From: Muricea muricata
Lineage: Eukaryota; Cnidaria; Anthozoa; Malacalcyonacea; Plexauridae
Assembly (NCBI GenBank): GCA_963855995.1
Contig: OY979723.1
Span: forward strand, 1,617,001-1,681,000
Reading direction: 5' to 3'
Length of the DNA: 64,000 nt
The notes under the pieces: model-generated
Databases searched by the model: none
What the model saw: the letters and a program-made list of their open reading frames with translations, nothing else
What the model was told of the DNA's origin: nothing
In this document: in pieces, positions 27,101 through 47,514 of the stretch
Position numbering within the stretch: the first letter of the stretch is position 1
Layout of the letters: each line of letters starts with the position of its first letter
Program-made: the position numbers and the translations under genes

Positions 27101-30100
27101 CTTCGAGTCTTTCTTGTTTTTCGGATTCCAATTTATCAACCTCTTCTTTCAAGGCGCTACTGTACCACTTTTCTTCCTAAGAGAAAAAAACGCATGACAT
27201 TCCTAAGGATAATTAAAATACACGTTCTCTGACTAAGTATTTTACTATGATGGGTTAAGACAAAATAAACTATTTACAAGCTGTGTGTAGAAATGCGAAA
27301 CCGAATGCAGAAGGAAGCAATTCGTGATGTATTCCTAAGGATGATGCATGAATAGTAATGGTGAGTGTGACAATCTTGCTACAACAGTTCTGTATTAGGG
27401 TCGTTAGGTCAGCGTGGTAGCAAGTGTGATATTCCCCTCAAGTTGTTACAAGTTGTCAACAAGTTGTTCCAAACTTGTCGACAACTTTGGACAAGCAGTG
27501 CGGACACAACTTATTGACGTCTTCCTGACAGACTTGTTTCAAGTCGCGAGAAGACAGAATGAATGCATTCTACCAGGGCAGTTGTAGCAACTAAACATCC
27601 GCAGCCTTCAAGTTACCTTCAACGCAGCATTGATATCATTAATTTCACGCTGCAATGCAACAACTTCCGTTGATTTCTCCTCCAGATCCTTCAATGTCGT
27701 GTCGAGCAGCGACATGTCTTCAGAATTCGTTCCGCCGTGCGATTCCTCATCAAACGACAACAAGGAACCAGTTCGCTCGTTCCAAATTTTCGACGAATCT
27801 TGTCCATTCTTGATAACCGCTGATGTATTTTTTGCCTGAAAAAGGTGAAATTGAAACATAAACCTCAGTCTGAACACATACATTTAAAGGAATGGACTGG
27901 AAACGCGAGGTCAAGCGGTAATAACACCCCATAATATACTTTACTTTGGAACCCTGTAACTTCACTATAAATACGTGTATATTGAAACAAGAACAGCAAT
28001 GTCTATGGAATAATCAACTTTTCAAAACGTCTTGATGTAATGTAAAAAATGTAAAAAAGCTAAAAACCAACGCTGAATGTTTGCCTTCTTTTGAATGCCG
28101 AGAAATATCGTATGTCAAAAAAGTTTTACGAAAAAATTCAGTCGTGATTTCCAGCCTGTTTACTCCCCCCTCCCTCCCCCAGTAGCGAAGCTAGCCCGAC
28201 AATTTGGTCATGCTATCCAAATTTAAATCAGTAGCATTATTCATTTCTTGAGAAACTGATTCCTTATATGGTCTATAAACACAGAAAAATTTGCATGCCC
28301 AAATGTCGGGCTGACTTTGCCTCCCCCCCCCCCCCAACGAAAAAAGGTTAAAAGTATTGCTGTTCTACTTTAAAATGAATAAGTAAACACAATGTCCTGG
28401 GATATATTTAAATTTTAAAGCGAAGTTACAAAGTTCCAAAGTAAAGCGTATAAGGCTGTATCAGCCTAAGGATGCAGCATCGGTAACATTAGCGATTTAG
28501 CTCGCATTCGAGACCATTTTTTTAACTGTCTACGATTTGAATATAAAAAAACCTATGACTTGATTCATTACAACACTGCTTGTCTTTATGTACTGCACCT
28601 TCGAAGCTGCGTCTTCAGGTTTTGAGTCTCCATGTTCTTTCTCCCAATGTGCTTGGAGATCTTCGGCAGTTAGAAAGCCCCAGTAACATGTTGGACATAT
28701 GAAACCCTAAAAATAGATACAGAACGCGAGTTCCAGCAAAAGCCTTCTGAATCACTCTGCGCAAGCAAGTGTGGATATTATATAGCGTATATACTGCTGC
28801 TAGCGCATATCATTTCCTATCATGAATATGATGTTTTCTTTCCAAAATCAGCGGTCGTCGAGCGAGACATGTTCTCGCCGAAAAACAGCAACAGCGCCAG
28901 GGTTAGGCTTGTTTTATAGGTCGAATTTCAGTCGCGTCGAATGCAATTCAAACAACTGATGAGATGACTTTACTTGCTTAAACCGGGCTGAAATTTTAGC
29001 CCCTTAAAGTGCCTATGAAACGAAATTTTTACCACCTATTTTAAGATTACGTTGGGAAGATCACTTAAAATGAGAATATAATCTCTTTGCTAGAATTTTT
29101 CAACTGTCTTACCTGTCGAGATATTCAATTTTATTTGATATGATAATAACTTAACCAGTGACGTCATTATGCATAATGACTTTTTGAAAATCTTCATTGA
29201 TTTGAAAAGTAGTCAAAATATCGCACATACATTCCCAAGACTGAATGTTAATCCTCGCCTACTCATATGCAAGTCCAGTTTTAGTTTTTTTACATTATTG
29301 TATGTTGCAAAATAAGCAATTTAATTGACACTCATTATACAGGATGACGTCAGTGGTTGTGTTATTTGTACATTGAATAAATTTGAATATCTTGACAAGG
29401 AAGAGAGCTACAAAAATTTTACCAAAGAAGTTATATTGTCAATTTGAGTGATCTTTGAAATGCAATGAACAAAATATTAGAGCAAATTTCGTTTCATAAG
29501 CACTTTAATGCATTAAAGTGTGTATGAATATCAAAAGTATGTGAAGCTAAATGTATTAATTGTGTATTAAGATAGGATATACAACATACAAGCTAAAAGT
29601 GTCGCTTATAAATCGTAAACAATTAATCGTACGACTGTTCAGTCGTTGTAATGTATAATAATCTCGCCGGCCTAATAATAGAATGCGCTGTGATTGGTCA
29701 GTCGTTGAAAGATTAGACACTTCAAATTATCATTTCTGTTTCAAATTACGGTAGGATGGCGGCAGGTGCTCTTTCATTTCCCCCCCTTAAGCTCGAGAGC
29801 GCCTGCTTCGCAGGCTACTTGTGCATGAGTTACTCGTGTTCACTTGTGTGCCACTCGTGCTCAGTGTAGAATGAAACATTGAAAATTCTTTACTTTTAGT
29901 TGTTTATCTTCAATACTAAAGAGTTTTCCCACGACTAACACTGGTTAAAAAATGCGTACTGCAACTACTTTGGTGCTGTTAGCCCTAATGTGCATCACAG
30001 TTGAGGTGAACGGTTTAGTTTCCTCTCGTGAACAACAAACCAATGAAGACGGTGAGTATACAATGTGAACAACCTTACGTATATGGTAATATATTTCTTT

Positions 30101-33100
30101 TTCCGCTTGTCGATATTAAGAGCCTTAATTGTCAATTGGTTAAATCCTCAACGTCTTTTGTAGACATTTTACAGACAGTGTAACATCCCCCTTTGTCTTG
30201 TCTCGCAATATTTTGTGCAGCGAGGAATTGGGAAACAAGTCACATAAGTATATATAAAGTGTAACAACACTGATCAAGCAACTCTTTACTTGAAATAAAT
30301 CTCTTAATAGTGTAACAGCGTCCCATGCGTTTGGTCCCATTTTAATGGCTTTAATAATGCTTTTGCTTTTATTTCGTCAGTGACATGGGAGGTTTCAATG
30401 CCCAACGACGAGGATATTCCCGAAGATGAAGAGCTGTACGATACGAAGATTCTGAATAAGAGACGCCTTAGTGAGCTGAAGTTTCCAGGCGATTGCAAAG
30501 CCAAAACCCTTGTAGGTTTTGCGAAAAAATGCGGCCTCACGGTTGAAGCTGGAGGAAGCCATTGGGTGGTGAAAGACGGGAAGGAGTATGTGACCACCAT
30601 TCCTCATACTGTGAAGTCAAACTATACTTGCAAGAGTATAATTACCGTACTTAATGATCGCTGTGCCTGATTCAGGGGAATAGTCACTACCCGATCCTTT
30701 GTTAACTACAGTATATATGTTACATTGACGTAGTTATCACTGTAGTCTAGCCACTGAAATTAATAAACAAAGATTGATCGAGTTTAAATGTAATCCTCAT
30801 TCAATGCTAGTCAACGAATCCCTTCGTATATAGCTCTTAACTTGCGAAAGTTTATTTCTTTTCCCTCTAATATTATGAATTTTTTAAAATGGTCTGGCTT
30901 AAATATACAGGAAGTTCATACTTCCTGACAGCTAGTTCTAAGAATGGCGACAGACGTATTTACATTAGGCAAGCAGGGTTTTTAATTAATGACTTGGGGT
31001 CTTGTTCAGGGGTGAAGCCAGCCTGACATTTGGCGATGCAAATGCAAATTTTTCAGTGTTTATACTCCATATAAGGAATCATTTTAAAAAAAATGAATAA
31101 TAATGTTTTAAATTTGCATAAATTTGTGGTTTCGCTACTGGTCTTGTTCAATTTGTTAAAAAAAGCCTTATACATAAAAATATTCTCGTCTGTCAAAAAG
31201 TGACTGTAGATGTCCATGTTCTAAGGCTTCCTTATATTTCGTTCCAACGTTTAGCGATTACACCAAAGGGCCTGGTTGACCCAAGCAACAGGATACAGAA
31301 CGTGAGTTCCAGCAAAGGCCTTCTGAATCACTCTGAGCAAGTGTGGATATTCAAGCGTATATACTGCTGCTAGAGTGCTAGTGCATATTACTTCCTATCA
31401 TAAATGTGATGTTTTCTTTCCAAAATCAGCGGTCGTCGAGCGAGACATGTTCTCGCCGAAAAACAGCAAGAGCGCCAGGGTTAGGCAGGTTTTATAGGTC
31501 GAATTTCAGTCGCGTTAAACGCCATTCAAACAACTGATGAGATGACTTTACTCATTACTTTTGTTTAAATTGCATTCGATGCGACTGAAATGCGATGCAT
31601 AAACAGGCCTCAATTCGATCTCGTTTTCAATGGCGATGATATTTGGGGAATTTAGGCGAACGTGCAAATTACTTATGAAAAAGGAAAGAGTAGAAACGTA
31701 TAAGAACGCAGTTGGTTCATTTCTAGGTACTTGTCATAAATTAACAACGGCGGAGGGATGAACACATGGGGAGGGTGATAAACTTTTGAACCAAATATTC
31801 TTTCTAAAACCGCTGCCATATGGTCATAAACTTGAGAAAATATCAATATAAAACATGTATTTAGATTCCTAAACGCACATCTCAGTCTACACAAATGAAA
31901 ATAATATATTCTATTTTTACAATAACAGCCTGAATGTCAATCATCCTAAATTAGTTGCTTCCGTAGGAATGCTTAATGTTAGTACTTATGATTTGTAAAT
32001 GTCAACAACTATCGTAACAAATATAGCACTCTTTTTCTTTAATGCATTTGTTTTAAATATACCGTTTAACAAGTATATGAGCTCAAGTATAATTTTGAAT
32101 GATCCAGCCCATTCCTCCATTTGTAGAGTCTTTAAATTCACGACCCTCACCATGTTTCTATCCCTTCTCATCCGCTGTTAATTTCTGACAAGACTATTAG
32201 AAGGTTCTTCTTGATCTACCGCGGTCAATAAGTGCGATAGTGAGTTCGAAAAAATGATTCGTGAATAAATTTTGAAAAATCTTCCTTGAAAAATGGACTA
32301 AGTCAGATAGACACCTCGACAGTCGAGATTTATGTCATATGAAGCCCTACATAAGCCCTAATATAGAGCCCTTCATCTAACAAAACAGATTGATCCAAAG
32401 GCAAAATAATCTACTTGCATCGTATTGAAATAGCGTGACGGGAAGTCCGAAAAGACAATTATTTCAATATACTTTATTTGATGAATATGACATCTTAAAT
32501 GACACAGAATGTAAATAAAGGAAATTCCACTGTTTGACCAGGCCGCAGGTGTACAAATGTCTTGGTGAAGTTTTCTTGAAAACAATGATATTGCGACGTG
32601 AGTAATGCTAATTACATACTGACGTAATTTGTGTGGTTATAAAAAGTCACAGGGGTGCGCGAATTTGGCAGTGTGTTGATCTACGTAATCTAGAGAGGAC
32701 GAAACAGAGTAATTCGGTAAGTCTATATTCTGTACTGATGAAACCATGTTCTTTCAGGCAGGACAGTTTAGTGTTCTTTGAGACACGTGTACTTCTAAAT
32801 ATAAATTGTGAATTCGCAGAGTTTCCTTACACTTTACTGCGACAAGGATTTGAAAACAGGGAGTCACAACGCTTATAGCGATTAATCCAAGGCGTCTGGC
32901 TCACCCTAGCGATTTAAATCGATCCGAGATCGGTTAAGAGCCGTGGAGAGTCAAGAATGAGGTGGCACTGGTCCGTGTTGTATCTAAACTAGACCATCTC
33001 ATATCTAATTTTAAGATACACCTAAATTTTCAGCACTGCATATTTTTGAACAAACAATTGCCCAGTCAACGAGCTAAGTTAACGTTTCCTAAATTGCCTC

Positions 33101-36100
33101 TAGTTTACTGTACAGAATAATATTACATTTTTATTTTTATTTTTACAAGTTTACCATTAATAATTAGGTCAACTGTTACTAAATATAAACGAGATAAATT
33201 ACACATAATGGCTGGAATGACCACGCAGAGATAATTACATCCAGAAAGCATAGCATAAATTTACTCTAAAGCGTGACGGATATTTAGACACAATAATAAA
33301 CAGACAAACGAACTAACAGACCAAAAATTAGAACAAACGACGATGAAAAGACAAAATTACATATTCACATTCGGCGTTCTGTGTCCATAATTTAGAAGCC
33401 TGCTCCCAGATTAATAATTTAGTTGTCGAAGAACGAAAATCCGAACTTAAACGTATCGAAAGCTTCGCCATAAGAAACTTATGTAGTGTTTTCACGAAAA
33501 TTATTATTGTTCAGCATGCAAACCAACAAAGAACTTAATTCAGTTCTTTGTTACAAACATGTCAGTTATCTCTTCCGTTAGGGTCACAGTATAAGTAATG
33601 ATACTTGAACTGGTCAATGTTTAAAGGAAATCAAATTAGCATCTTGCAAAAACATGTCAGTTATCTCTTCCGTTAGCGTCACAGTATAAGTAACGATACT
33701 TGAACTGGTCAATGTTTGATACAAGGGAAATACTGTTTTGTTGTAAATCAGAAAATTTCAATGTAACTCAAGCTTTGTACTTACACGTGCACAGGTTTGG
33801 GGCTTTGCCGTCAATCATCTGTACCGGTATTTCGCGCGGCCAGGTAGTAAAGTGTTACGTCATAAAATGTAGTATTGTAAAATTGTAGGAAAGTAAAAGT
33901 AAAACATTGAAGTTAAGTTCATAGATATAGAGATATTAAGTTTTACCAAAGAAGTAAACGAAATAAGTTAAGTTTTGAACATTTTTTAAATCATATTGCC
34001 CGAGCATATAATTGACTAAGACAGTGCGACAACGCCTTAAACAAACAAAGGAAGAGAGCTGGCAGAGAGTTCAGAAGCCAACAACCTAACGCCTGATTGG
34101 TTTAGCTAACATCTGCCCACCTTTTCGTACACGTGCACAACGAATGTTACAACCGTTAGTATAAAAGGACCGCCACAGTTGAATTCCAGCAGTAGCTGCA
34201 GAGTAGCGAAAAGGAAGCGAAAACCCTACTCGAGAAGAGAAGACAAGACAAGACTACACAGGACAAGAGAAACGAAGAAGAAGAACTTGAGCTATAGAGA
34301 CTGTAGAATAAAATTGTAAAGATCTCCTACCTCGCGTAGAGATAAAAAAACCTATTATTACATCTTTTTGCTGTTTTCGTCATGTATATATATTTTTTAT
34401 CACTACACATTTGACATTTTACCATTACACATTTTGCTTTACTCGGCACAAATTGGTTATCAGTACACACTAAATTTGGGAATGTCTTAAGGGTGATCTC
34501 GAGGGGGGGGAAGGGGGGGGGGGGCGTTCGCACTAACGTCGTACAGTATTGTTGCAGGTTTATTGACCATTGGTGTGGCAACCTGACAAGCGGAATTTCA
34601 ATGTGACATAATGAGTGACAGTTTAATTTTACGGTGTAATGAGATGAACACGAAATTGTAATCGATTGTAAATATTGAATGCGAAGTTTATGTTGAAACA
34701 GGTTGCAAAGACCTAAGTAACAATTTACAAAATCCGTTAGGTCATCCTATTTAGATATTATTGTTCTAGTGATAACTTGTCAGTCAACCAAAGTGTATTC
34801 ATTTGGCTTGCGAGCTCATCATTGGGCGATTACAGAATCTAATATGGTGCTATAGAGGCCGATTACATGGAGAGTTTGAAGCCCAGGCTCAGATTTCCAC
34901 CCAGGCTGAGAAAATAATGTCTGGAAATTGAGCTATTTTGCCGTTCAAAATTCGCTCTAGCCCCTTAATGTATTAAAGTGTGTATGAATATCAAAAGTAT
35001 AAAAAGCTAAATGTGTTATGTGTGTATTGAGATAGGGTATACAACATATAAGCTAAATGTGTCGCTTATAAATCGTAAAAAAGTAACCGTACGACTGTTC
35101 AGTCGTTGTAAACTTGTGTGTCACTTGTGCGTGCGTTACTCGTGTTGACTTGTGTGCCACTCGTGCTCAGTGTAGATTGAAACATTGAAAATTCTTTCAC
35201 TTTTAGTTGTTTATCTTCAATACTAAAGAATTTTCCCACGACTAACACTGGTTAAAAAATGCGTACTGCAACTGCTTTGGTGCTGTTAGCCCTAATTATG
35301 TGTATCACAGTTGAGGTGAATGGTTTAGTTTCCTCTCATGAACAACAAACCAATGAAGACGGTGAGTATACAATGTGAATAACCTTAAACGTATATGGTA
35401 ATATATTTCTTTTTCCGCTTGTCGATATTAAGAGCCTTTGAGTGACGGCAATATCTGTAACACACTTAGTTTCTGAAATACTGAAGGACAAATGACACTA
35501 GCCGTCCACCATTTTGCTTTATAACAAGCTCTATTTTATTGGCGTCACAAGCAATGTAGACTGTATAAAACTACCTGTCAATTGGTTAAATCCCTCAACG
35601 TCTTTTGTAGACATTTTGCAGACAGTGTAACATCCCCCTTTGTCTTGTCTCGCAACATTTTATGCAGCGAAGAATTGGGAAACAAAGTCACAAGTATATA
35701 CAGTATATTATAGTGTAACAACACTGACCAAGCAACTCTTTTCTTAAAATAATAAAAATAGTGTAACAGCGTCTCAAAATGCGTTTTGTCCCATTTTAAT
35801 GGCTTTAATAATGCTTTTGCTTTTATGTCGTTAGTGACATGGGAGGTTTCAACGCCCAACGACGAGGATATTCTCGAAGATGAAGAGCTGTACGATACGA
35901 AGATTCTGAATAAGAGACGCCTTAAACAGCTGAAGTTTCCAGGCGATTGCAAAGCCAAAACCCTTGTAGGTTTTGCGAGAAAATGCGGCCTCACGGTTGA
36001 AGCTGGAGGAAGCCATTGGGTGGTGAAAGACGGGAAGAAATTTGTGACCACCATTCCTCACACTGTGAAGTCAAACGGCACTTGCAAGAGCATAATTAAA

Positions 36101-39100
36101 ACACTTAATCGTCACTGTGCCTAATTCAGGGGAATAGTCACTACCCGATTCTTTGTTAACTACAGTACATATGTTACATTGACGTAGTTATCACTGTAGT
36201 CTAGTCACTGAATTTAATAAACAAAGATTGATTGAGTTTAAATGTAATCCTCATTCAATGCTAGTCAACGATTCCCTTCGTATATAGCTCTTAACTTACG
36301 AAAGTCTATTCCTTTTCCCTCTAATATTAAGTAGTTTTTAAAATGGTCTGTCTTAAATAAAGGAAGTTCATACTTTCTTACAGCTAGATAAGAATGGCGA
36401 CAGACGTATTAACATTAGGCAGGGAGGGTTTTTAATTTATGACTTGGGTCTTGTTCAGGGGTGAAGCCAGCCCGACATTTGGCGATGCAAATGCAAATTT
36501 TTCAGTGTTTGTGCACCATATAAGGAATCAATTTTTAAAAAAATGAATAGTGTTTTAAATTTGCATAAATTTGTGGTTTCGCTACTGGTCTTGTTCAATT
36601 TGTTAAAAAAAGCCTTATACATAAAAATATTCTCATCTGTCAAAAAGTGACTGTAGATGTTCATGTTCTAAGGCTTCCTTATATTTCGTTCCAACGTTTA
36701 GCGATTACACCAAAGGGCCTGGTTGACCCAAGCAATTTAGATCGATCCGTAATCACTTCAGAGCCGCAGGGGGAAGTATGGACAGACAAAAACGAGTGAC
36801 ACGGATCCGAAATCGACCTAATCTCAACCAGCTCTAGTGATCTTGGGGGACGGGGGCGCGCGTTTATACTTAATACGCTTTGGTTCCATCTGATTTAGAT
36901 CGATCTCAAACCGATTCAAAGCTGTTTACTTGAACCAAGTGTCCATGCACGTTTGAACAAGAACGTCGTTGATTTCATTATATATAAATCTGAAAGCTGA
37001 ATATGGTAACTTTAATAAAAAAACGTCCATATTATACACTTATAGTGCCCCTATCGTAAGAGTTTGATCACAATAAGTATATATTTGAGGGAGACATGTA
37101 GTTGTCTTCACAAAAGAACCCGAATTTTGCAACGCTTTTCCGCACTAAAGAATAGAGAATTTTTACGAACAAGATAATTTCTTCTATCAAAGTAAAACGT
37201 AAAAAGGTATTACCTTAAAATTGATTAACAACGTGAAACAAAATTACTTGTGCAAGACGTCATTACAGCTTGACCTGCCATCAGGGCTTGATATTACAGT
37301 ATTTTCTCTCATGAATGTGACGCTCTTCTTTAAAAATCAGCAGCAGTAGAGCAAGACATGCAATTTTCTCCCCGAAGACTAAGAACGCTACGGTTAATTC
37401 GATCTCTTTTTCACTATGAGAATACAGCTAGCTCATTTTTAGGCGGGTTTTTTTATGTTCCAGGGTCAATAACTCCAATAGTGACCTTGAATAAATAATT
37501 AGATAAACTTGTGACGAAATCTCGAAAAAATTGGAAAATCCTCAAAAAATGAATGAAGTCTCAAAAGTCGAGATTTATGTCATAAGAAGTTCTATATATG
37601 ACATAAATCCCTTCTTCTTGTTTTCTATTTCTTACTTGGAAATTCCATGTAACAAAACACATTGATACAAAAGTTCATTCATGCGAAACAATGCACTTGC
37701 ATCCTTAACAAGGATTGGAAGCTTGAAAAGGCAATCTATTAAAATATAGGTCTTTTAATGAATATGACATTTTTAACGAGGCCTGATTTTGGTACAAAAA
37801 ATCCTGATGTTCAATGTGGTCGCAGTAAAGTGCAAAGGTTGATGGAGTTTTCTTCATAAAACTTACATCGCAACACGACTTGCTAAATATAGCATGACGT
37901 AATTTATCAGGTTATAAAAAGTCAACGAGGTGGGCGAATTTGGCATTGTGCAGGTTTGAAAATTGACACCGGACGAAGAATAATTCGGTAAGTTGATATT
38001 CCGTTTTTATGATAGATAAATAGATGGATAGATAGTTTAAAAAAGCTGGATTTCAAATGATTCACAATATGTAAAAGATAAAGCAGTCAGTTATAACATA
38101 TGAAATTATAGTCCATTAATTACGTTATTATAAAAACCTTAAAATTTAATATCTACATTTTTTTGTTCAAAATTATAACAGTACTTGAATTTTGACAGCT
38201 TGAATCGGTGTCAAGGAATTTTTAAAATGAACTGTCTTAATTAAACGAGGCTCATATTTTTGTACAGCTCCAAGGCTGTAGACAGAGGTATTCAGATTAG
38301 GCAGGAGGGTTCTTAATTTGTGACTTGGTTCTAGTTCAATTTGTTAAAAAAGCCTTATACATACTACATATTCTCGTCTGTCATAAAGTGATTTTAGATG
38401 TCCTTGTTTCAAAGTTTTCTTGTGTATCATACCAGGAAAATTTGTTTTCATTGCACGTCTTTGCATCCGTTCTAAATCGTTGGAAAGATACGTAGGAAGG
38501 TTCCAACGAAAAACTACAAGCAAATTCGACAAGGGATCTGATACGATGTTTTTTCTGGGAGGACAGTTAAGCATTCTTTGTGATGTGCTTATTCCTAAAC
38601 ATAAATTGCAGGTGACTTGAGTTTCCTAAAAAGACAACTACCAGAATATATATCAGACATGTTTACTGTAACAAACAACTCCACCTACAGTCTTAGAAGC
38701 AACGACCGTAAACTTCACTTAAATAAACCCAATATACTGATTTCATGAAAAAATCCTTCTCATACAGGGCAGCGTTTGCATGGAACAATTTACCTTGTGA
38801 TGTAGTTTCTGATTATGAGTCTCTCTCTATTGCAAGATTTAAAAATTTAATTAATATTTCAAGATTTTGGAAGATGGCAATTGAGAATATCTCAAGACAA
38901 TATTAGTCATTTCATGACACTTGTTTGACATTTGTGGAGTTGGGCTTGTGTATATGTCTTCATAAAACTTGCATAATTGTGCTGTCTGTGTATATTTTCT
39001 ATATTTCTTATAATTTTTATAGTATAATTCTAGATTTAATATTTTAGTAAATTGAAACGGCCTCTTGAAAATCAGACTTTGGCTGAAGAGCTACCGTTTT

Positions 39101-42100
39101 AAAATAATTGTAATAATAATAATAATAATAACAGGTAAACAAGTCCAAACACGCTTATCGATAAATCCAAAGGGCCTAATTCGCCCAAGCGATTTAGCTA
39201 GATCGATCCGAAATCGGTTCACATTGACCGGTTCGCGTTCGAATCGGAGACAACGATCCGAAATCGACCTAATGTAGACCACCTCCACAGGTGATCTCGC
39301 GAAGGTGGGCGTTTACACTTGGTAAACTTTGGTTCGATCTAATTTAGATCGCTCTCAAACAACGTCAAGAGTCCACGTTTCAACAAAAACTTTGATGATT
39401 TTGTCATAAAAGTTAAGAGGGGCGAGTGAAAAGAACTTTAGAGTAGCAAAGTTTGTGAAGTACCAGTCATGTCATAGAGTGGAACAATGTACTGTTACAG
39501 GTTTAATTGAAGGATCCATTGGAGCGCACCATTTTGACATATGGTGCTTGCGTTGTGGTAGCCGGTGGTTAAATTTAGTTAACTTTTCACAATAGCTGTT
39601 ACGTCATCCAGGCTAGATGTAGCCATAACGAAAAAAAAAAAGGAATTGAATTCATTAATAAACTACAAAATTCAATGCATCCATACATACATCTGGCTGA
39701 AACACATACACCTACCACTTGCAATTTGTATCAATTAAAAGGGTAATTAATGTATATCTATAATCAAAGATGCAGTTACTTTACATAAGAGGACAGAGTA
39801 TTTCTAGCGCATGCTTACAAATTACAATTGTACAATTATTTACACATAAGAAAGAAAAATATGTAACTAACAGGTTACTCACTAGTTATATACTATATAC
39901 CGAAACAGACAGAGGATGAAAGAATTTTTAAAACCATTGCTTTTACAGTTATAGGGACATGCATGAGTTGTAAGTTAAGGTTTTACAAGTTCAGAAACAA
40001 CAGTACTTTGTCGAAGAACCCTCCTTCTAAAAAAATTGAGCATAGTAGCTCACGCCTAGAATACAATTTTGATAGATTCTTTCTATTTCTTTGGATAGGT
40101 ATTCTGGTATATCATAATGTTAAACCTGGGTGCAATACTCCAAAATACGTCTTATACATGAAAATACACTATGTCAATATTTTAGTGTCACAACGTGAAC
40201 GTATGACGACTCGAAGCATGTAGAGACGTTTCGCGGACTTTTTCACTTTGTGATCCACATGAGCATTCCTCTTCGGGTCTTGAAAATTACGCCAAGTAGT
40301 TTAGCAGTTTCACCAATTCAATAAGCTGATCGTTAACAGTCATTGGAGACAAATTTGCGTTCTTTTTCCAAAAACAAACGAGGATTGCATTTGCGAGGAT
40401 TTTAATTCCATCTAAAATAGTTTGAAAATTCGAAACTTGTTTTCTAGAAAGGGCTTCAGAAACAGACGAATCGTCAACGTATCTCCATCAATTGGTCTGA
40501 CACCAACAAGTCGTTAATACTCATCATGAATAGAATAGGACCCAATGCAATGCCTTGCGGAGCCCCACCGGTAGCGATATTTGGCGTTTTCAATTTCCTT
40601 AACCTTATTTATTTTTTCACAAATAAGAATAACGTCTGCTTCTTCCCATGAGGCAGTAACGGCTCTCTCTTGGATTGACGCATTAAAAATATCAGCAACG
40701 GGTGTAGAAAGCTCCAGGGCAAACTCTTTTAATACCCACTTAGGTAGATTGTCAGATCCAGAGACTTTCGTGCGCTTGAAGTCAGAGAGATCCGTATGAA
40801 AATCTTCAGGAGAAATGTGGTATTTAGAGATAATTTCGTGCACAACAACAGGATCAGTTTGAACGTTTCCAGGACGATTGCTTGGGGGTGGAAATAGTTT
40901 GCAAATGTATTACTTGTGTATTAAGATAGTGTGTCACTGGTGTTCACTTGTGTGTCACTCGTGTAAACGTGTGTGTCACTTGTGTTAAATTGTGTGTCAC
41001 TCGTGTTCACTTGTGATAATTCCTTTCACTTTTAGTTGTTTTTCTAAAGAATTTTCCAAAGACTAAGACTTAAAAATGCGCACTACAACATTTTTGGTTC
41101 TGTTGGTCGTAATGATGTGCATAACATTTGAGGTGAATGGCTTTGTTTCCTCCCGTGAGCAACAAACCAACGAAGCCGGTAAGTATAAGATAAAACACCA
41201 GATGTATGTGCATGACCTTAAATGGATATTTTTGGCTTGTCGATAACAACCGTTGAAGAACTGTAATAGCCGTTGATTTTTTGGTAACGTTCATTCTTCC
41301 TGGATATTGAAGTAGAAATGAAACTAGCCGTTCGCATCTTGTTTTATAATAAGGTCAGAAGCAGATAAGACTGTGTAAAACTTGCTGTAAATTAGTTAAA
41401 TCCCAATGAAATTTTCTTGTACACTTCGCAATAAGAATATAGTATTACATACAAATACAGATGGATTTTACAAACATTAAACATGTTTGCTTATTGCCTC
41501 TTGAAATGAGGAATTTTCCCCATTGCGAGATCATGGAATTTTCTTTTGAACATCCACGATGTAGGATGGCGATGTCTTTGCCCTTCAATTCTTTAGAAAC
41601 TAAGCAGGTCATCAAAAATTTAACATTGCGCTTATGTATATAAAAATACAAATCAAAGTTATATCTCTTTAGCCGCTTAGCAAAGTTATAATTCGCGTTG
41701 CAATTACATATTGACAACCATTTTCTAACTTAAGGCGCTGTTATACACAACTTGTCATGCAACTTTTCCCTCAATTTGGTTGCTACACAACAAGCGAAAT
41801 TGCAATGTGTAACAAACATACCTTGCAATCATAAAGTCACGCAACATTTTTGATGCAAGAAACCTTGCACGAAGTAGAAAGAAATTCTTGTCCCGCAATA
41901 TTTGAAAATAACTCCAAGCCACAACTCCAACGTTACGCAGGATAGTCCAACGTCAAAACGACTGCGAGACAAGTTTCAAGAATCGTTGCACAGTGCCGCC
42001 CAGATAATTTTTGGGGACCCCGGGCAAAATTTTCAGTTTGGGACCCAACCTCTCCCCCAACGTACAGCATCAATGATATTATATTTTTTTGTTTCTATGG

Positions 42101-44644
42101 TGCTTTTGGGGGCCCTCACAAGCCTGGGGCCCGGGGCAAATTGCCCACCTTGCCCCCCCCCCTCCCCCATCTCCCCCGGGCAGCCCTGAACATCGCTGAT
42201 CACACATCTCTTATCCTTAAAATAAATTTCTTGCATAGTGCAACTTTTACATTCCTTAGTAGTGGCATTGCAGGTTTCAAAGCGTAATGACGAGGATATT
42301 CCCGAAGCTGAAAAGCTGTCCGATACGAAGGAGTACGTGTTGAGTAAGAGAATGATGGCCCGGCTGAGGTATCCACGCCATTGCAAAACCAAAAAACTTA
42401 AACGCTTCGCGATAAGCTGCAATTTAACAATTGAAGCTGGAGGAAATCATTTGGGGGTGTATGACGGGCGAACACGCGTTACTACCACTCCATTTGGCAA
42501 TCCGAAACCAAATACTTGCAGGAATATAATTAACGCACTTAATTATCACTGTACCTGATTAGGGGAATAGTCACTACTCCATCCTTTGCTGTCGACAGTA
42601 TATGTTACATCGACGTTCTCCAGTTTGTAGTGTAGTGATAATTTCAATGAACAACTGTATTGCAGTCACGGAATTTAATAAACAAAGGTTAATCGAGTCT
42701 ATGTAGTCCTAATTCAATGCTAATTAACGACTCCCTTTCTTTAGCTTTTAAATTGCAACAGTTTATGCCGTCAGTATTATGTGTAGTGCCGTTTTAACAC
42801 TCTTGTCTTCCAAGCTGGGTGGCTAGGGTTCAAGCCTTGCTTGGCTGGACCCTTACTCAAGGTCTGTCTTTGCATTGACATCAGTAAATGGTAAGCCTTC
42901 CACCCCCCCCCCCCCCCCCCCCATGCATGCTTTGCAGTCTCTATTAGAAAGTAATTTGGATAAGAGCTCTTTGCTCAACTCCCAATCATGCATCAGCCAG
43001 CTAGTTCCTAAAATAGCTGGGCTGTTGATCCACACATACATGTTAATAACTGAACAAATAATATTAAAAAAAATTAAAACATCTAGGTATCTGGCTGCAC
43101 ACACCACCAATACAAAAATCTACCTTCATTGTTGAGCACTATTTTGTATTATGTTCTGTTGGTAGTTTACTTTTAATTTGTCAGCTATATGTTGCTCCTG
43201 TTGCTCTTGTTAGATACTAATTCTGTCGTTCAACATCACACAAGTATATGTTCGATTCCTGCCAGAGGAACTATAGTTGATGGTGAATTTTTCTCAACTG
43301 TTCCCAATTTGAATTTTGACATATGTATGATTTCGACTCGAGATTAAGACACATTTACTTTTTAGAAATGATTCAACTTCTAGTGAAGCAACACATGTGT
43401 TCTCTTTATCCTATATTTATTGTCATTTGTCACATAAATTGTTAAATTGGTTTCCACAGTAGAAGGCAAGGCAGAAAGGCATGTTTTAATAAATGAGTGT
43501 CATTATGTTCCACACCCAAAGAAAGATTAGGGGCTTCCCTTAAAATGTCATATTCTGTTTCTATCATTTTAAGTGCTAAAAGAACAGAACTTTAATATCA
43601 ATAACACTCCTCAAGTCATCTATACTGGCACAGAGCATACAACTCCTCATTAATTATGCATACCCCTGGCTCAGCCAGTATGCTAAAAAGAGGCATTCTC
43701 CCCCTGAAAATACTCATCATTGCTATTAAAACTGGCCAGGGGGGGGGAGAAAGCTCTCCTTAGTGCACTGGCTAGTAAGCCATGAGAAGTTGAACCCCTG
43801 TATGCTCTGTGATACATGGCTTTATGTAATTTTCAAAGTTTACCATCAATATTAAGCAATTTAAAATATGCATATTGCATGGTTTAAGTTTTCTATCTAC
43901 AACTATTGGTATGTAGGTCTGCTGCAGCTCAAAATTTTCCTGTGAGCACCGCTTGCACGCTCATTTACCTTTCCAGCCCTGCATGCATAGATTGTTTGGA
44001 TGGACATTGCGATAGAGAGTGCAAGTCATGGGACATGAAACAAATAATGCAAACGACCTTTGAGGACTTTCCTTAGCGATAATGAGGCAACTTTCTGTTG
44101 TCCGTCCAAACATTGACAAACAATCCACAGATGTTTTGTGGTTGTCAATTGGGAGACAGCTTGATTTAAACAATCTGATTTGTACAGTTAAGCTTTTACA
44201 GACAAGGGAAGTCAACTACTCTAGTTTGTCATTATATAAACACCCTTTAGGGCATTCAAATGCCAATTACAACATAGAATGTTACAAATAACTGCAACCT
44301 ACAACTTCCGGACACAAATAAACAACCTGCGAGCTAGTAGTAACTATTTGCAAAAGCGATGTATTATTTGACACGAATAAAAAGAAACAACAGACTTACT
44401 GAATTTTCTTGTCCATCATCTTCGTCAACGCTGGGTTTTTCTGTCTTCGATCCAGCGTCCTTGAATGTTGAAAACGGAAAATGAGCAACGATCAAATTGA
44501 TCAAAGATGTTTACAAAAATTTGAATGATCAACTATGCAAGCTTAAGATATCACTAAAGCTGGAATCTTGCTAGTTCGAATGTTAAATGAGAATTTAAGA
44601 ACTGCAGAAGACATACATACCTTCTTCAGGAACCTTTTGAACAT
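8977..44644 (-). CDS. EEA1: Early endosome antigen 1, whole gene (about 40 coding exons)
   Basis: Rab5 effector that tethers early endosomes for fusion. The architecture is complete and in family order: short basic N-terminus (MFKRFLKK), C2H2 zinc finger (residues 30-53, binds Rab5-GTP in the family), a conserved EEKWYS stretch, about 1,100 residues of heptad-rich coiled coil (homodimer rod), and a FYVE zinc finger (about residues 1248-1312, binds PI3P). I read 40 coding exons whose junction phases all agree, giving 1,344 residues if the last exon reads through, against 1,411 in human. Intron 2 is 15.7 kb and holds three plus-strand genes; most other introns are 100-1,300 bases and repeat-rich. 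Exon coordinates are listed in the entries below. A skipped phase-0 exon is possible; the gene identity is not in doubt. Confidence 0.93.
9281..9300 (-). CDS. EEA1: EEA1 exon 39, 20-base microexon with the PI3P-binding motif
   Basis: Twenty bases encode HHCRNCG (the Gly is completed by the next exon), the core of the R/K-HHC-R/K-x-CG phosphoinositide motif. Flanking sites are TAG| and |GTTAGT. With its neighbours it rebuilds IRK-HHCRNCG-SIFCAEC in one frame. Confidence 0.92.
9951..10170 (-). CDS. EEA1: EEA1 exon 38, rod end and first half of FYVE finger
   Basis: Ends the coiled coil and opens the FYVE domain. The W-x-x-D signature is in KWEKD (Trp about residue 1248), followed by the first zinc pair CNGC and FSVSIRK. 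The exon stops exactly before the R/K-HHCR motif. Flanks are TTACAG| and |GTAGTG. Confidence 0.93.
10576..14772 (-). CDS. EEA1: EEA1 exons 31-37, coiled-coil rod, C-terminal part
   Basis: Exons in order: 14683..14772, 14138..14199, 13397..13466, 12527..12622, 11704..11793, 11074..11278, 10576..10630. All are heptad-rich. Split codons close correctly at 14138/13397 (AA|A Lys), 11074/10576 (G|TA Val) and 10576/9951 (AG|A Arg). The introns hold two fold-back elements and a hairpin-forming minisatellite, listed separately. Confidence 0.88.
11313..11650. repeat. Minisatellite of hairpin units, about 80-base period
   Basis: About four units, each GAGAGTT...GAGAAGCTAGAGTTTGTATG...TTCTCAACTCTCATGTCCTG.TCAAACGAGAACAAGAG. 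Within a unit the GAGAGTTGAGAA and TTCTCAACTCTC segments are complementary. In an EEA1 intron. Confidence 0.75.
12241..12461. mobile_element. MITE, ACATACTCCGAAGAA-type family, copy 1
   Basis: Inverted arms from ACAAAAAAAAATATTCCGAAG to TTTCGGAATATGTTTTTTGT, joined by paired AACTCGAGTATTG and ACCATCATCGTCTGACGATGG-like segments. About 220 bases, in an EEA1 intron. Confidence 0.7.
12922..13341. mobile_element. Fold-back element (GGACAATTTGCATAATAGAC family)
   Basis: 420 bases with arms of about 205. Both arms carry GCGAAATGTTGTAAAATA, TTTGCAAACTTCGCAGGGCT and CGCGCGTAATACAAAT. It lies in an EEA1 intron. A degenerate copy is at 22930..23214 and a scrap at about 46,240..46,270. Confidence 0.85.
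14244..14430. mobile_element. Fold-back element in EEA1 intron
   Basis: CTATCCATCGGATAGTGATT pairs with AATCACTATCCAGTGAATAG, and AACTGTTGCAGAA with TTGCAGAAC-type sequence. A related CACCGAATAGTGATTTTCTC lies at about 7,402. Confidence 0.5.
15077..19952 (-). CDS. EEA1: EEA1 exons 18-30, coiled-coil rod, middle
   Basis: Exons in order: 19818..19952, 19563..19691, 18486..18599, 17899..17997, 17460..17549, 17298..17357, 17014..17121, 16487..16534, 16252..16311, 15890..15958, 15676..15753, 15261..15407, 15077..15184. Every one is a multiple of three in phase 0, so any could be skipped without a frameshift. Exon 18486..18599 must use the weak donor ATT|GTCAGT, because the better-looking GTAAAT two bases on would break the frame. 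Exon 15261..15407 carries three cysteines (CESC and LC), unusual for a coiled-coil rod. Confidence 0.88.
15440..15660. repeat. Minisatellite GGTCCAGTGTAGGTAGTATT, array 1
   Basis: Three units of about 80 bases (GGTCCAGTGTAGGTAGTATT, AAGCTGTCGTGGTTTGTGTC, AAAAGATATCTCAAACGTGG). The same unit forms a second array at 47515..47815. Confidence 0.75.
18052..18415 (-). mobile_element. tRNA-derived SINE
   Basis: On the minus strand it opens with a tRNA-like head: box A-like TTGGTGTAGTGGTCAG and box B-like GAGTTCGGTCCC. The body carries GGGTTTTCTCCGGGTACTCT, a core motif spread widely in SINEs of marine invertebrates, and a second weaker copy near 18,070. It lies inside an EEA1 intron (between 17997 and 18486). 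Confidence 0.75.
20557..27176 (-). CDS. EEA1: EEA1 exons 5-17, coiled-coil rod, N-terminal half
   Basis: Thirteen exons in minus-strand order: 27081..27176, 26208..26274, 25516..25700, 24183..24241, 23959..24099, 23736..23798, 22748..22853, 22513..22599, 22225..22307, 21956..22049, 21753..21806, 21220..21321, 20557..20685. All encode Glu/Lys/Gln/Leu heptad sequence. Junction phases agree throughout, including the non-zero ones; for example 24183..24241 ends with two bases that complete Arg with the first base of 23959..24099 (GQR|PTAEHVSSLQ). For the 22748 exon the acceptor is fixed by phase at TTCAG|T and not at the next AG. Confidence 0.88.
20840..21190. repeat. CAACGTTGTTTTAC-type degenerate repeat
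   Basis: Repeated ACGTTG/CAACGT words with varied spacing (GACGTTGTTTTACAAACGTT, TCAACGTTGTTTTACCGTCA). Intronic; no unit length is clean. Confidence 0.5.
21375..21670. repeat. Tandem TACTGGATAGCTCTATCAGTTC repeat
   Basis: About three imperfect units (AAACTAAACTAACTTTATTTA, TATACTGGATAGC, CTAGAGG.C.AGTAA, TACAGGAGGAA). A single unit stands at about 16,005..16,125. Both lie in EEA1 introns. Confidence 0.65.
22082..22212. repeat. 45-base minisatellite, about 3 units
   Basis: TTTGTCCACCTTCAGGAAAC + ATGGCTAGGAAACAATGTTT + CCTGG repeats almost exactly three times. It is in an EEA1 intron; the 45-base period keeps a short ORF open but nothing indicates coding. Confidence 0.8.
22930..23214. mobile_element. 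Degenerate copy of the 12.9 kb fold-back element
   Basis: Shares ATGGACAATTTG, GGCGAAATGTTGTAAAATA and the closing CAAATTGTTCAT, with weaker pairing between arms. Also intronic in EEA1. Confidence 0.65.
24455..24862. mobile_element. MITE with about 76-base terminal inverted repeats
   Basis: Arms contain TTAACAAAAAGTTTAAATAC and CGTTTCGGTCTCCTCTAC. The loop of about 255 bases is unrelated to the arms and has no recognisable protein. One arm of the family also stands alone at about 2,942..3,035. Confidence 0.8.
25100..25460. repeat. TTGTTACAAGTTGT family, full fold-back copy
   Basis: The clearest member: TGTAACAAGCTTGATAGGG ... CAGCCATGATATAACA, then ACTGTTATATCATGACTG ... TTGTAACAAGCCTGATG, pairing about a centre near 25,255. 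Confidence 0.7.
26441..26674. mobile_element. MITE, same family, copy 2
   Basis: Outer ends AGAAAAAACATACTCCGAAG and its complement; inner arms pair through GACTCTATTTCAAAGT. Layout as in the copy at 12.24 kb. EEA1 intron. Confidence 0.75.
27617..27835 (-). CDS. EEA1: EEA1 exon 4, start of coiled coil
   Basis: Seventy-three codons between TTTCAG| and |GTAACT. The last part reads LQREINDINAALK and splices in phase to exon 5, which begins EEKWYSSALKEE. That junction aligns with the conserved post-finger segment of EEA1. An acidic, serine-rich stretch fills the first half. Confidence 0.92.
27885..28480. mobile_element. MITE, ATGGACTGGAAACGC family, copy interrupted by another element
   Basis: Left arm at 27,888 (GGAATGGACTGGAAACGCG), right arm ending near 28,480 (TTCCAAAGTAAAGCGTATAA). 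In between is a second repeat (about 28,190..28,325; TTTGGTCATGC...GCATGCCCAAATGTCGGGCT) whose relatives are at 9,715..9,850, 31,016..31,145 and 36,465..36,590. Confidence 0.55.
28599..28706 (-). CDS. EEA1: EEA1 exon 3, N-terminal C2H2 zinc finger
   Basis: Thirty-six codons starting GFICPTC. The pattern is C-x2-C-x12-H-x4-H, the same spacing as human EEA1 (FICPQC... H-x4-H). This finger is the N-terminal Rab5-binding site in the family. Flanks are TTTTTAG| and |GTGCAG. Confidence 0.93.
28725..28975 (+). repeat. Upstream duplicated block, copy 1
   Basis: Near-identical to 31305..31555 (GTTCCAGCAAA..., CGGTCGTCGAGCGAGACATG, CGCCAGGGTTAGG), with a diverged third copy at about 37285..37400. It marks the start of the repeated unit: this block, then promoter, then gene. 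Copy 1 is followed by a fold-back element and not by the TATA promoter. Confidence 0.65.
29004..29508. mobile_element. Fold-back element of about 505 bases
   Basis: Terminal inverted repeats: TTAAAGTGCCTATGAAACGA at the left and its complement (GTTTCATAAGCACTTTAA) at the right. No coding capacity. It sits between the duplicated block and paralogue 1. Confidence 0.6.
29605..29613 (+). promoter_or_regulatory. Proximal TATA-like element, paralogue 1
   Basis: CTTATAAAT lies about 345 bases upstream of the start codon and is conserved at 35065..35073 before paralogue 2. About 165 bases of extra DNA, ending in a GCCTGC...GCAGGC hairpin, separate it from the gene in copy 1 only. Paralogue 3 lacks the segment. 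Confidence 0.3.
29952..30670 (+). CDS. Secreted 4-cysteine protein with HicA-like domain, paralogue 1
   Basis: Two exons, 29952..30051 and 30381..30670, joined at a phase-1 intron (G|GTGAGT, GTCAG|). The 129-residue precursor has a signal peptide (1 to about 21), an acidic pro-region (NEDV... DEDIPEDEEL, 31-58), a KRR site (60-62) and a basic domain with Cys72, Cys84, Cys117 and Cys128. From about residue 75 the order is small helix, beta segment with GGSH (His94), DGK turn, TTIPH, then TCKSIITVL. That order is typical of bacterial HicA (dsRBD-like fold). I infer a secreted, processed, disulfide-bonded effector, perhaps antimicrobial. Function is not shown by the sequence, and the HicA relation needs a profile search. 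It lies inside EEA1 intron 2 on the other strand. Confidence 0.8.
30762..30767 (+). terminator. Polyadenylation signal, paralogue 1
   Basis: AATAAA about 92 bases after the stop. The hexamer and its surroundings (TTAATAAACAAAG) are conserved behind all three paralogues. Confidence 0.6.
32620..32716 (+). promoter_or_regulatory. TATA promoter and possible noncoding first exon, copy A
   Basis: A CRE-like TGACGTAA (32620) is followed by TTATAAAAA (32637..32645) and then a conserved stretch ending AATTCG|GTAAGT (donor after 32716). The same arrangement recurs at 37895..37987. The next acceptor in the right strand and context is CACTTTTAG| at 35206, just before the start codon of paralogue 2. I infer a spliced 5' UTR for that gene; no transcript data are available. 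Confidence 0.45.
33557..33722 (+). repeat. Two-copy tandem repeat, about 97-base period
   Basis: ACATGTCAGTTATCTCTTCC... through GAACTGGTCAATGTTT occurs at about 33,557 and again at about 33,654 with two or three mismatches. Confidence 0.7.
33853..34362 (+). mobile_element. Possible solo LTR-like promoter segment
   Basis: Begins TGTTACG and ends TATTACA, with GTATAAAAGG (about 34,160) and AATAAAA (about 34,308) in the order of an LTR (U3, TATA, R, polyadenylation). No partner LTR, no internal genes and no matching 5-base target duplication were seen. It could instead be an ordinary promoter of a noncoding transcript. Confidence 0.25.
35259..36124 (+). CDS. Secreted 4-cysteine protein with HicA-like domain, paralogue 2
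   Basis: Exons 35259..35361 and 35835..36124, same phase-1 intron, 130 residues. Nearly identical to paralogue 1 in signal peptide, acidic pro-region (DEDILEDEEL), KRR site and mature domain. The GGSH, TTIPH and TCKSII motifs and all four cysteines are kept. Differences concentrate in the mature part (for example LKQLKF, KKFVTT, NGTCKSIIKTLNRHC), which is slightly more basic than in paralogue 1. The copy sits in a segmental duplication of about 1.8 kb. N-x-T at the third cysteine is a potential N-glycosylation site. Confidence 0.8.
36216..36221 (+). terminator. Polyadenylation signal, paralogue 2
   Basis: AATAAA about 92 bases past the stop, in the same context as in paralogue 1. Confidence 0.6.
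37895..37987 (+). promoter_or_regulatory. TATA promoter and possible noncoding first exon, copy B
   Basis: TGACGTAA (37895), TTATAAAAA (37912..37920), GCGAATTTGGCA, and donor AATTCG|GTAAGT after 37987. The blocks and spacing follow copy A. The matching acceptor would be CACTTTTAG| at 41035 before paralogue 3, whose proximal TATA-containing segment is deleted. That makes this upstream promoter the better candidate for paralogue 3. Confidence 0.45.
38344..38574 (-). pseudogene. Non-LTR retrotransposon C-terminal relic (minus)
   Basis: Reads LPTYLSNDLERMQRRAMK...FPGM...LKSLYDRRE, the conserved region after the RT domain of CR1/RTE-like elements. Only this piece remains. Confidence 0.65.
38630..38900 (+). 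pseudogene. Non-LTR retrotransposon C-terminal relic (plus)
   Basis: Plus-strand frames read LPEYISDMFTVTNNSTYSLR and then, after a frameshift, MKKSFSYRAAFAWNNLPCDV...IARFKNLI, the usual last residues of such ORF2 proteins. It abuts a minus-strand relic of the same kind in opposite orientation. Confidence 0.65.
40215..40860 (-). pseudogene. Non-LTR retrotransposon reverse-transcriptase relic
   Basis: An open stretch (40514..40843) reads SGSDNLPKWVLKEFALELSTP... typical of CR1/jockey-type RT, then GGAPQGIALGP after a frameshift. The catalytic YVDD lies in another frame at 40470..40481, and RLYMLRV near 40,225. At least two frame breaks and a stop show it is dead. Its position among the paralogues makes it a candidate substrate for their duplication, but no breakpoint was traced. 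Confidence 0.75.
40905..41025 (+). repeat. 20-base minisatellite upstream of paralogue 3
   Basis: About five imperfect units of GTGTGTCACTYGTGTTMAMY. Shorter versions stand before paralogues 1 and 2 (two or three units). It replaces the proximal TATA segment of the other copies. Confidence 0.65.
41076..42558 (+). CDS. Secreted 4-cysteine protein with HicA-like domain, diverged paralogue 3
   Basis: Exons 41076..41178 and 42260..42558, 133 residues, phase-1 intron of 1,081 bases. The acceptor is TTCCTTAG| at 42259; the later GCAG| would put a stop in frame. The signal peptide and NEA/DEDIPEAE pro-region align with the other copies, and the cleavage site is SKR. Cysteines at 76, 88, 121 and 132 keep exactly the spacing of paralogue 1 (12, 33, 11) although most other mature residues differ. 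GGSH becomes GGNH, keeping the histidine (His98). The mature part is strongly basic. Same inferred role as its sisters; it is the oldest split of the three. Confidence 0.75.
42677..42682 (+). terminator. Polyadenylation signal, paralogue 3
   Basis: AATAAA about 119 bases after the stop, in a context matching the other two copies. Confidence 0.6.
42700..44390. other. Distal end of EEA1 intron 2
   Basis: After paralogue 3 there is a poly-C tract and AT-rich sequence. No fourth paralogue, promoter copy or exon was recognised. Confidence 0.5.
42901..42922. repeat. Poly-C tract
   Basis: Uninterrupted run of about 20 C. Other long homopolymer C/G tracts are at about 26,115, 28,322, 34,503, 42,154, 43,740 and 47,978. 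They are typical slippage and assembly-error sites. Confidence 0.8.
44400..44459 (-). CDS. EEA1: EEA1 coding exon 2 (acidic linker)
   Basis: Twenty codons, acidic and serine-rich (DAGSKTEKPSVDEDDG...), bounded by AAG| and |GTAAGT. It corresponds to the variable linker ahead of the zinc finger. The next exon lies 15.7 kb away. Confidence 0.82.
44621..44644 (-). CDS. EEA1: EEA1 coding exon 1 (start)
   Basis: Encodes MFKRFLKK and ends at a GTATG donor. The basic octapeptide matches the basic start of animal EEA1. The junction to exon 2 is phase 0. It is the only ATG found whose short frame splices cleanly into exon 2. Confidence 0.8.
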
Positions 44645-47332: not shown

Positions 47333-47514
47333 GGGGAACCACAGAAATTATATTTTCAATTGAGACTGGTGTTAAAATAGATAGTTAAATTAAACTCTGA
47401 AATTTGTTCCGGCTTGTTTAACGTAAATAAGCGATTCTGTCTAGAGGAAGTTTGTCTTGAGTGTGTTGTTTGCAGCAATGAATTATCAGCTGTTCTTTCT
47501 CTAGGGTAGGTTAT

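What the first reader, a model, noticed from the sequence alone, without database searches (positions are those of the whole stretch)
29952..42558. A secreted, cysteine-bonded HicA-like gene family nested in an EEA1 intron
Three tandem genes encode a signal peptide, an acidic pro-region, a dibasic site and a basic domain of about 67 residues. The domain has four cysteines at invariant spacing (12, 33, 11). Its order of elements (helix, strand with G-[SN]-H, D-G turn, T-x-P strand, then [TN]C[KR]-x-I-I helix) is that of bacterial HicA mRNA interferases, including the histidine that is catalytic in HicA. If real, a toxin-antitoxin RNase/dsRBD fold has been turned into a secreted animal effector. 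Directly seen: the precursor layout and conserved residues. Inferred: HicA relationship and any defensive role.
Basis: partly seen in the sequence, partly recalled or inferred. Interest (0 to 1): 0.9.

Follow-up and report, generated by a model that had tools for sequence, protein, structure and literature searches.

The report
Secreted HicA-like genes in an anthozoan
An animal, probably a coral or sea-anemone relative, carries three neighbouring genes for small, apparently secreted proteins built on the fold of a bacterial RNA-cutting toxin called HicA; similar secreted proteins occur in bacteria, which suggests an old transfer from microbes to animals, but what the animal uses them for has not been tested.

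Summary
Three tandem two-exon genes (29952-42558, +) encode a signal peptide (by eye), an acidic pro-region ending in KR and a basic 68-residue domain with four cysteines at spacing 12/33/11. No other copies were found in the 453-Mb genome.

The HicA link holds, though under Pfam's cut-off. PF07927 is the only family hit (best 17.3 bits, cut-off 27; gene 3 none). A model of 26 HicA domains drawn without reference to this family scores genes 1 and 2 above all 3000 of their own shuffles; gene 3 fails. Profile search runs into PF07927 proteins at E 1e-9 and 1e-7. Predicted folds of a window and a bacterial-type member match HicA structures best. The window genes keep the histidine and glycine needed in Burkholderia HicA.

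New here: a probable bacterial sister family, signal peptide plus HicA-like domain with four cysteines (29 proteins), and a relative in Actinia tenebrosa. Cysteine 2 sits two residues apart in the two groups. Secretion probably predates the animal genes.

Function is inferred: a propeptide-masked RNase-like defence effector, about 0.5. The EEA1-intron claim is unproven.

The parts
29952..30051 (+). gene 1 exon 1: signal peptide and start of acidic pro-region
   Evidence: in-frame splice model, GT donor at 30052; aligns with N-terminus of P0008
30381..30670 (+). gene 1 exon 2: acidic pro-region, KR site, HicA-like domain, stop
   Evidence: same ORF as P0002; genome match
30464..30667 (+). gene 1 mature HicA-like domain, 68 aa, 4 Cys
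   Evidence: AF2 model mca04f60aebaf; Foldseek and VIA HicA matches
35259..35361 (+). gene 2 exon 1
35835..36124 (+). gene 2 exon 2
   Evidence: PF07927 E 0.0052, under the cut-off
35918..36121 (+). gene 2 mature HicA-like domain
   Evidence: 17.9 bits to independent HicA model, 0 of 3000 shuffles reach it
41076..41178 (+). gene 3 exon 1
42260..42558 (+). gene 3 exon 2 (acceptor AG at 42258-42259)
42352..42555 (+). gene 3 mature domain, divergent; keeps 4 Cys and G-N-H
   Evidence: no HicA hit alone but E 1.4e-20 to gene 1
29840..29859 (+). YCACTYGTG motifs about 100 bp before gene 1 ATG
   Evidence: 12 in window, 1.74 expected; 9 of 12 lie just upstream of the three genes
35121..35165 (+). 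same motifs before gene 2 ATG
40929..41015 (+). 21-bp tandem array of the same motif before gene 3 ATG
29499..31288 (+). tandem duplication unit, copy with gene 1 (mate 34959-36735)
   Evidence: self-BLAST, three pieces of 89.5-94.9% identity
34959..36735 (+). tandem duplication unit, copy with gene 2
28560..28706 (-). EEA1-like C2H2 exon of the neighbouring gene on the opposite strand
   Evidence: Pfam match under the cut-off; gene name recalled

Best explanation
The three genes encode precursors of a secreted HicA-fold protein. Sequence shows: hydrophobic N-terminus, acidic pro-region ending in KR, basic domain with four cysteines. Inferred: the signal peptide sends the precursor through the secretory pathway, a furin-type protease cuts after KR, and the acidic pro-region keeps the basic RNA-binding face masked until then, doing the job that HicB does for bacterial HicA. 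Two disulfides (predicted C1-C3 and C2-C4, tying the starts and the ends of the two helices) hold the small alpha-beta-beta-beta-alpha fold together outside the cell. The released domain keeps the G-x-H active-site motif and most likely binds and cleaves RNA as an extracellular host-defence effector against microbes or viruses. The gene reached an anthozoan ancestor from bacteria that already secreted such proteins (inferred direction), then duplicated in tandem, with surface charge changing fast. Confidence: HicA-fold relationship about 0.93; secreted precursor about 0.93; bacteria-to-animal transfer about 0.8; RNA-cleaving defence effector about 0.5.
Confidence: 0.5

Rival explanations
1. 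The HicA fold serves as a disulfide-bonded scaffold of a cationic antimicrobial or nucleic-acid-binding peptide that no longer cleaves RNA; killing or neutralising comes from charge.
For: Domain pI 9.2-10.2 against an acidic pro-region, the layout of many antimicrobial precursors (recalled); 7 of 10 replacements between g1 and g2 involve a charged residue or histidine, net charge +4.9 against +11.0.
Against: The active-site His is invariant in 32 of 32 rows, together with T and P of the third strand, which a charge-only role would not need.
Confidence: 0.25
2. A digestive or venom (nematocyst) ribonuclease that acts on prey, not a defence factor.
For: Signal peptide, pro-region and KR site also fit cnidarian venom and digestive precursors (recalled); fast change of the domain.
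Against: No expression data either way; three copies only, no large expansion; a bacterial sister family would not share an animal-prey role.
Confidence: 0.17
3. Convergent small alpha/beta cysteine-rich fold unrelated to HicA.
Against: Independent HicA model against shuffles for g1 and g2, continuous profile path into PF07927 proteins, same motif order and G-x-H, two separate models both best matched by HicA.
Confidence: 0.05
4. Decaying or silent copies, or bacterial contamination.
For: pN/pS near 1; g3 diverged.
Against: Introns; a contig of at least 1.68 Mb in a 74-contig assembly with EEA1-like exons nearby; open frames with all four Cys kept in three copies at pS up to 0.40; relatives in Actinia tenebrosa and in unnamed assemblies.
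Confidence: 0.03

Closest known systems
HicA toxin (PF07927, type II toxin-antitoxin mRNA interferase; structures 5yrz, 6g26, 6hpb, 4c26)
   Same: predicted alpha-beta-beta-beta-alpha fold, G-x-H motif, T-x-x-P strand, basic, size of about 60 residues
   Different: canonical HicA lies in the cytosol beside HicB; here signal peptide, pro-region, KR site, four cysteines, no PF15919 HicB found, eukaryotic introns
Bacterial-type secreted four-cysteine HicA-like proteins (P0006, P0009, P0075 and others; Lysobacterales MAG locus L001), not named in the papers searched
   Same: signal peptide (by eye), L-x-Y/F-P-x-D-C start, His of G-x-H, N-x-T-C and I-I of helix 2, terminal Cys; anthozoan-type domains are 41-56% identical to P0006
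   Different: no acidic pro-region with dibasic site seen; Cys 2 at +14 from Cys 1 in 29 of 29 rows, against +12 in 15 of 16 anthozoan-type rows
Actinia tenebrosa LOC116288423 (P0012)
   Same: signal peptide, pro-region, KR-type site and domain; 42% identical to gene 1 over 86% of it, four Cys at the same positions
   Different: annotated only as uncharacterized protein; longer pro-region
Vertebrate secreted RNase A family (recalled)
   Same: works-like comparison only: small, basic, disulfide-bonded, secreted, histidine-dependent
   Different: unrelated fold and motif; no acidic pro-region

Membership tests
HicA toxin family (PF07927) | sequence match at the curated Pfam cut-off | tested here: not met
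   g2 17.3, g1 13.7 bits, g3 exon 2 none, cut-off 27; sibling P0067 carries a precomputed PF07927
HicA toxin family (PF07927) | dsRBD-like alpha-beta-beta-beta-alpha fold | tested here: met
   predicted models only, g1 and P0009; g3 not modelled
HicA toxin family (PF07927) | G-x-H motif with the essential His | tested here: met
   importance from PMC3969222 passages
HicA toxin family (PF07927) | homology to unselected HicA beyond shuffles | tested here: met
   g1 and g2: 0 of 3000 shuffles each; g3: 579 of 3000, so g3 only through its kinship to g1
HicAB toxin-antitoxin system | HicB antitoxin gene beside it | tested here: not met
   PF15919 absent at E<=0.01 from own genome and from MAG G001; other HicB models not searched; DUF3841 follows the bacterial copy in L001
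HicAB toxin-antitoxin system | cytosolic, no signal peptide | tested here: not met
   signal peptide and pro-region read from sequence by eye; no predictor run
HicA toxin family (PF07927) | mRNA cleavage and growth arrest | not testable with these tools
   needs the protein

The most novel reading that the evidence does not exclude
There is a family of exported, disulfide-bonded HicA ribonucleases in bacteria, and an anthozoan ancestor captured one and turned it into an immune RNase whose acidic propeptide replaces the HicB antitoxin, cut away on secretion.
Probability: 0.35. Interest if true: 0.9.

Novelty: new variant of a known kind. Interest (0 to 1): 0.76.

Why it matters
HicA is known as a cytosolic toxin held in check by HicB. 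A secreted, cysteine-bonded form in both bacteria and animals would add a new export-based use of a toxin-antitoxin RNase fold, and would give animals a secreted RNase family of bacterial origin, independent of RNase A and RNase T2 (recalled). The histidine and the propeptide make the idea directly testable with a small protein.

Tried and rejected
Profiles A5 and A3 against PDB sequences found no HicA, only a 40-residue stretch of cathepsin K (best E 0.09 and 0.006) and, with A5, splicing factor 19 at E above 1; cathepsin kinship rejected because the match covers about half of a domain and no papain fold stands among the listed structure matches. NCBIfam gave no relevant family (two chance-level matches in 8 proteins, E 0.04 and 0.1). 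Plasmids and phages hold no match to P0009 at E<=0.01; viral contigs none by the pattern scan. The genome-contig scan gave one locus, L001. Scans of 398 genomes of the phylum and 369 of the class around that MAG found, at E<=1e-5, only the MAG itself, so the bacterial family looks rare among sequenced species. A direct PF07927 scan of the own genome gave two matches elsewhere at chance level (E 0.39, 0.65). One simple pattern search for EEA1 exon 1 found nothing. No Rfam family in 28000-44000. Species not determined: one GFP-like match that looks anthozoan (recalled motif). Paper searches with HicA plus coral, cnidaria, sea anemone, Nematostella, secreted/signal peptide, periplasm, antimicrobial peptide and toxin-antitoxin plus metazoa and coral: no listed title is about a secreted or animal HicA. 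These are titles and abstract starts; two searches listed 20 of 51 and 10 of 21 papers. One coral hit was checked by passages and is HiCAssembler (PMC11577847). Seen as passages only: PMC2701414, PMC10865869, PMC3969222, PMC11594946 and PMC3482391 (no HicA in the part held).

Rows dropped: the tree (76 rows) left out P0002 and P0007 (same as g1, g3), P0032, P0049, P0052, P0058, P0061, P0062. Cysteine count: 45 of 48 rows parsed; P0077-P0079 were read by eye; P0063 and L001 were not in the count. Independent HicA set: 26 of 30 loci kept, 4 scored 10 bits or less; the 11 seed translations used to find them were picked by eye from 15. For the g1-g2 prepro comparison one extra codon of g2 was left out to align them.

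Full report
Observation. Three genes on the + strand were rebuilt: g1 29952-30051 and 30381-30670, g2 35259-35361 and 35835-36124, g3 41076-41178 and 42260-42558. The introns are GT-AG and phase 1. Each product has a hydrophobic N-terminus ending in VNG (signal peptide by eye), a 40-43 residue acidic pro-region (pI 4.1-4.9) ending in KR, and a 68-residue basic domain (pI 9.2-10.2) with Cys at 11, 23, 56 and 67. A whole-genome search finds these three loci and no others (six matches, two per gene; six frames, exon by exon, 453 Mb). P0008, a 130-aa ORF from short ENA contigs, aligns continuously with exon 1 and exon 2, which supports the splice.

Locus. g1 and g2 lie in a tandem duplication (29499-31288 and 34959-36735, three pieces of 89.5-94.9% identity; introns 302 of 325 aligned bases identical); g3 is older. 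Each gene has YCACTYGTG motifs just upstream: 12 in the window against 1.74 expected, 9 of the 12 in the three upstream stretches; g3's are a 21-bp tandem array. Since g1 and g2 flanks are copies, these are not three independent cases. EEA1-like exons lie on the minus strand, with the C2H2 exon at 28632-28697 and the FYVE start at 9981-10019; their Pfam matches are under the cut-offs and the name EEA1 rests on recalled domain order. One simple pattern search found no EEA1 exon on the far side of the three genes, so 'nested in an intron' is open.

Is it HicA? By sequence: PF07927 is the only Pfam family at E<=10 for g1 (E 0.067) and g2 (E 0.0052), both under the cut-off; g3's exon 2 has none. 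Of 32 family members 23 match PF07927 at E<=0.1, best 1.5e-4. A profile of the family searched against 5.8 billion proteins returned 62 hits at E<=10. The first 32 are of the secreted type; of the remaining 30, 20 carry PF07927, 10 no Pfam domain and none another; best values 1.5e-9 and 1.8e-7, the latter named a HicA family toxin of Candidatus Nealsonbacteria. To avoid circularity I took HicA domains from 60 genomes drawn without regard to this family (23 of 60 had a match at E<=1e-5; 30 loci were given), kept 26 domains, and scored the window domains against 3000 shuffles each: g1 9.6 bits (its best shuffle 7.6), g2 17.9 (best 10.7), g3 -0.7 with 579 of 3000 shuffles as high. Profile-profile comparison with that set gives 62.6% probability (E 7e-5) for the anthozoan-type group and 89.4% (E 2e-6) for the bacterial group, with G-S-H on G-S-H; the two groups join each other at 99.9%.

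Active site. The His of G-x-H is invariant in 32 of 32 rows of A5, with T and P of the third strand. In B. pseudomallei HicA, G22C and H24A abolish toxicity while S23A does not (PMC3969222, passages). The window proteins have G-S-H, G-S-H and G-N-H; in some bacterial-type rows the glycine directly before x-H is replaced. P0063's first domain and the distant paralogue in L009 lack the His.

The bacterial sister family. Twenty-nine proteins have what reads as a signal peptide followed by the domain, directly or after a short linker (P0011, P0019, P0021, P0067), with four cysteines. Only one relative is placed in a named bacterium: L001, a Lysobacterales MAG contig with bacterial neighbours (DUF3841, cytochrome c, Ppx/GppA); that copy has Tyr in place of the last Cys. 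That the 29 are bacterial is inferred from their layout and their likeness to it. No PF15919 HicB was found in that MAG or in the window's genome. The family looks rare: only that MAG among 398 genomes of its phylum and 369 of its class. In the tree of 76 rows and 64 columns the secreted group is parted from canonical HicA with 99/95, the bacterial group (with three signal-less proteins and the two-domain P0063) has 97/89, and the anthozoan-type group 75/73 (few columns, g3 on a long branch). I read this as one entry into anthozoans from bacteria that already secreted the protein; the reverse direction is not excluded.

Cysteines. All 29 bacterial-type rows have Cys 2 at +14 from Cys 1, 15 of 16 anthozoan-type rows at +12, none both. 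P0064 lacks Cys 2 and Cys 4 but keeps 1 and 3; P0077-P0079, without signal peptides, keep 1 and 3 at these places (read by eye). This predicts pairs 1-3 and 2-4, which would fit two roughly parallel helices (recalled geometry; no coordinates were measured). P0005 lacks only Cys 3, and L001 only Cys 4, which do not fit neatly.

Evolution. In the mature domain pN is close to pS: 0.092 and 0.097 for g1-g2, 0.362 and 0.367 for g1-g3, 0.359 and 0.398 for g2-g3. Fisher tests show no difference (p 0.73-1.00), so neutrality averaged over sites cannot be told from diversification of the surface over a constrained core. Seven of ten g1-g2 replacements involve a charged residue or histidine, and net charge is +4.9 in g1 and +11.0 in g2.

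Mechanism. I commit to an extracellular RNase-like defence effector held inactive by its acidic pro-region, at about 0.5. Shown: layout, predicted fold, motif, family. Inferred: secretion, KR cleavage, masking, RNA cleavage, defence. Paper searches listed no title on a secreted or animal HicA; in the HicA survey PMC10865869 the words 'secret', 'signal peptide' and 'cysteine' do not occur, and in the HicAB review PMC11594946 'secreted', 'animal' and 'periplasm' do not.

Noticed in passing
P0063: A 190-aa protein with a long acidic pro-region and two tandem HicA-like domains with bacterial-type cysteine spacing; the first domain has lost the active-site His. It may be a separate eukaryotic acquisition.
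   Followed up: partly
P0077-P0079: Proteins without signal peptide that hold L-K-F-P-G-D-C and keep Cys 1 and Cys 3; possible cytosolic intermediates, two of the three on long contigs.
   Followed up: partly
L009 1369-1770: Second, divergent secreted-looking paralogue in the genome of the Lysobacterales MAG (E 7.9e-9), without the G-x-H histidine.
   Followed up: no
window 46586-47347, minus strand: Single-exon rhodopsin-type GPCR (7tm_1, E 1.3e-9, over the cut-off) on the EEA1 strand beyond the three genes.
   Followed up: partly
window 28716-28974 and 31292-31552: The stretch next to the EEA1-like C2H2 exon is repeated at 89.5% identity downstream of gene 1.
   Followed up: no
window 29840-29859, 35121-35165, 40929-41015: Shared YCACTYGTG motif cluster upstream of all three genes, a candidate common regulatory element.
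   Followed up: partly
window 40514-40909, minus strand: Open frame that reads like a LINE reverse-transcriptase fragment (by eye); no Pfam match.
   Followed up: no
P0033, P0034: The PF07927 proteins nearest to the family already carry cysteines at the anthozoan-type C1 and C2 positions, although they show no signal peptide.
   Followed up: no
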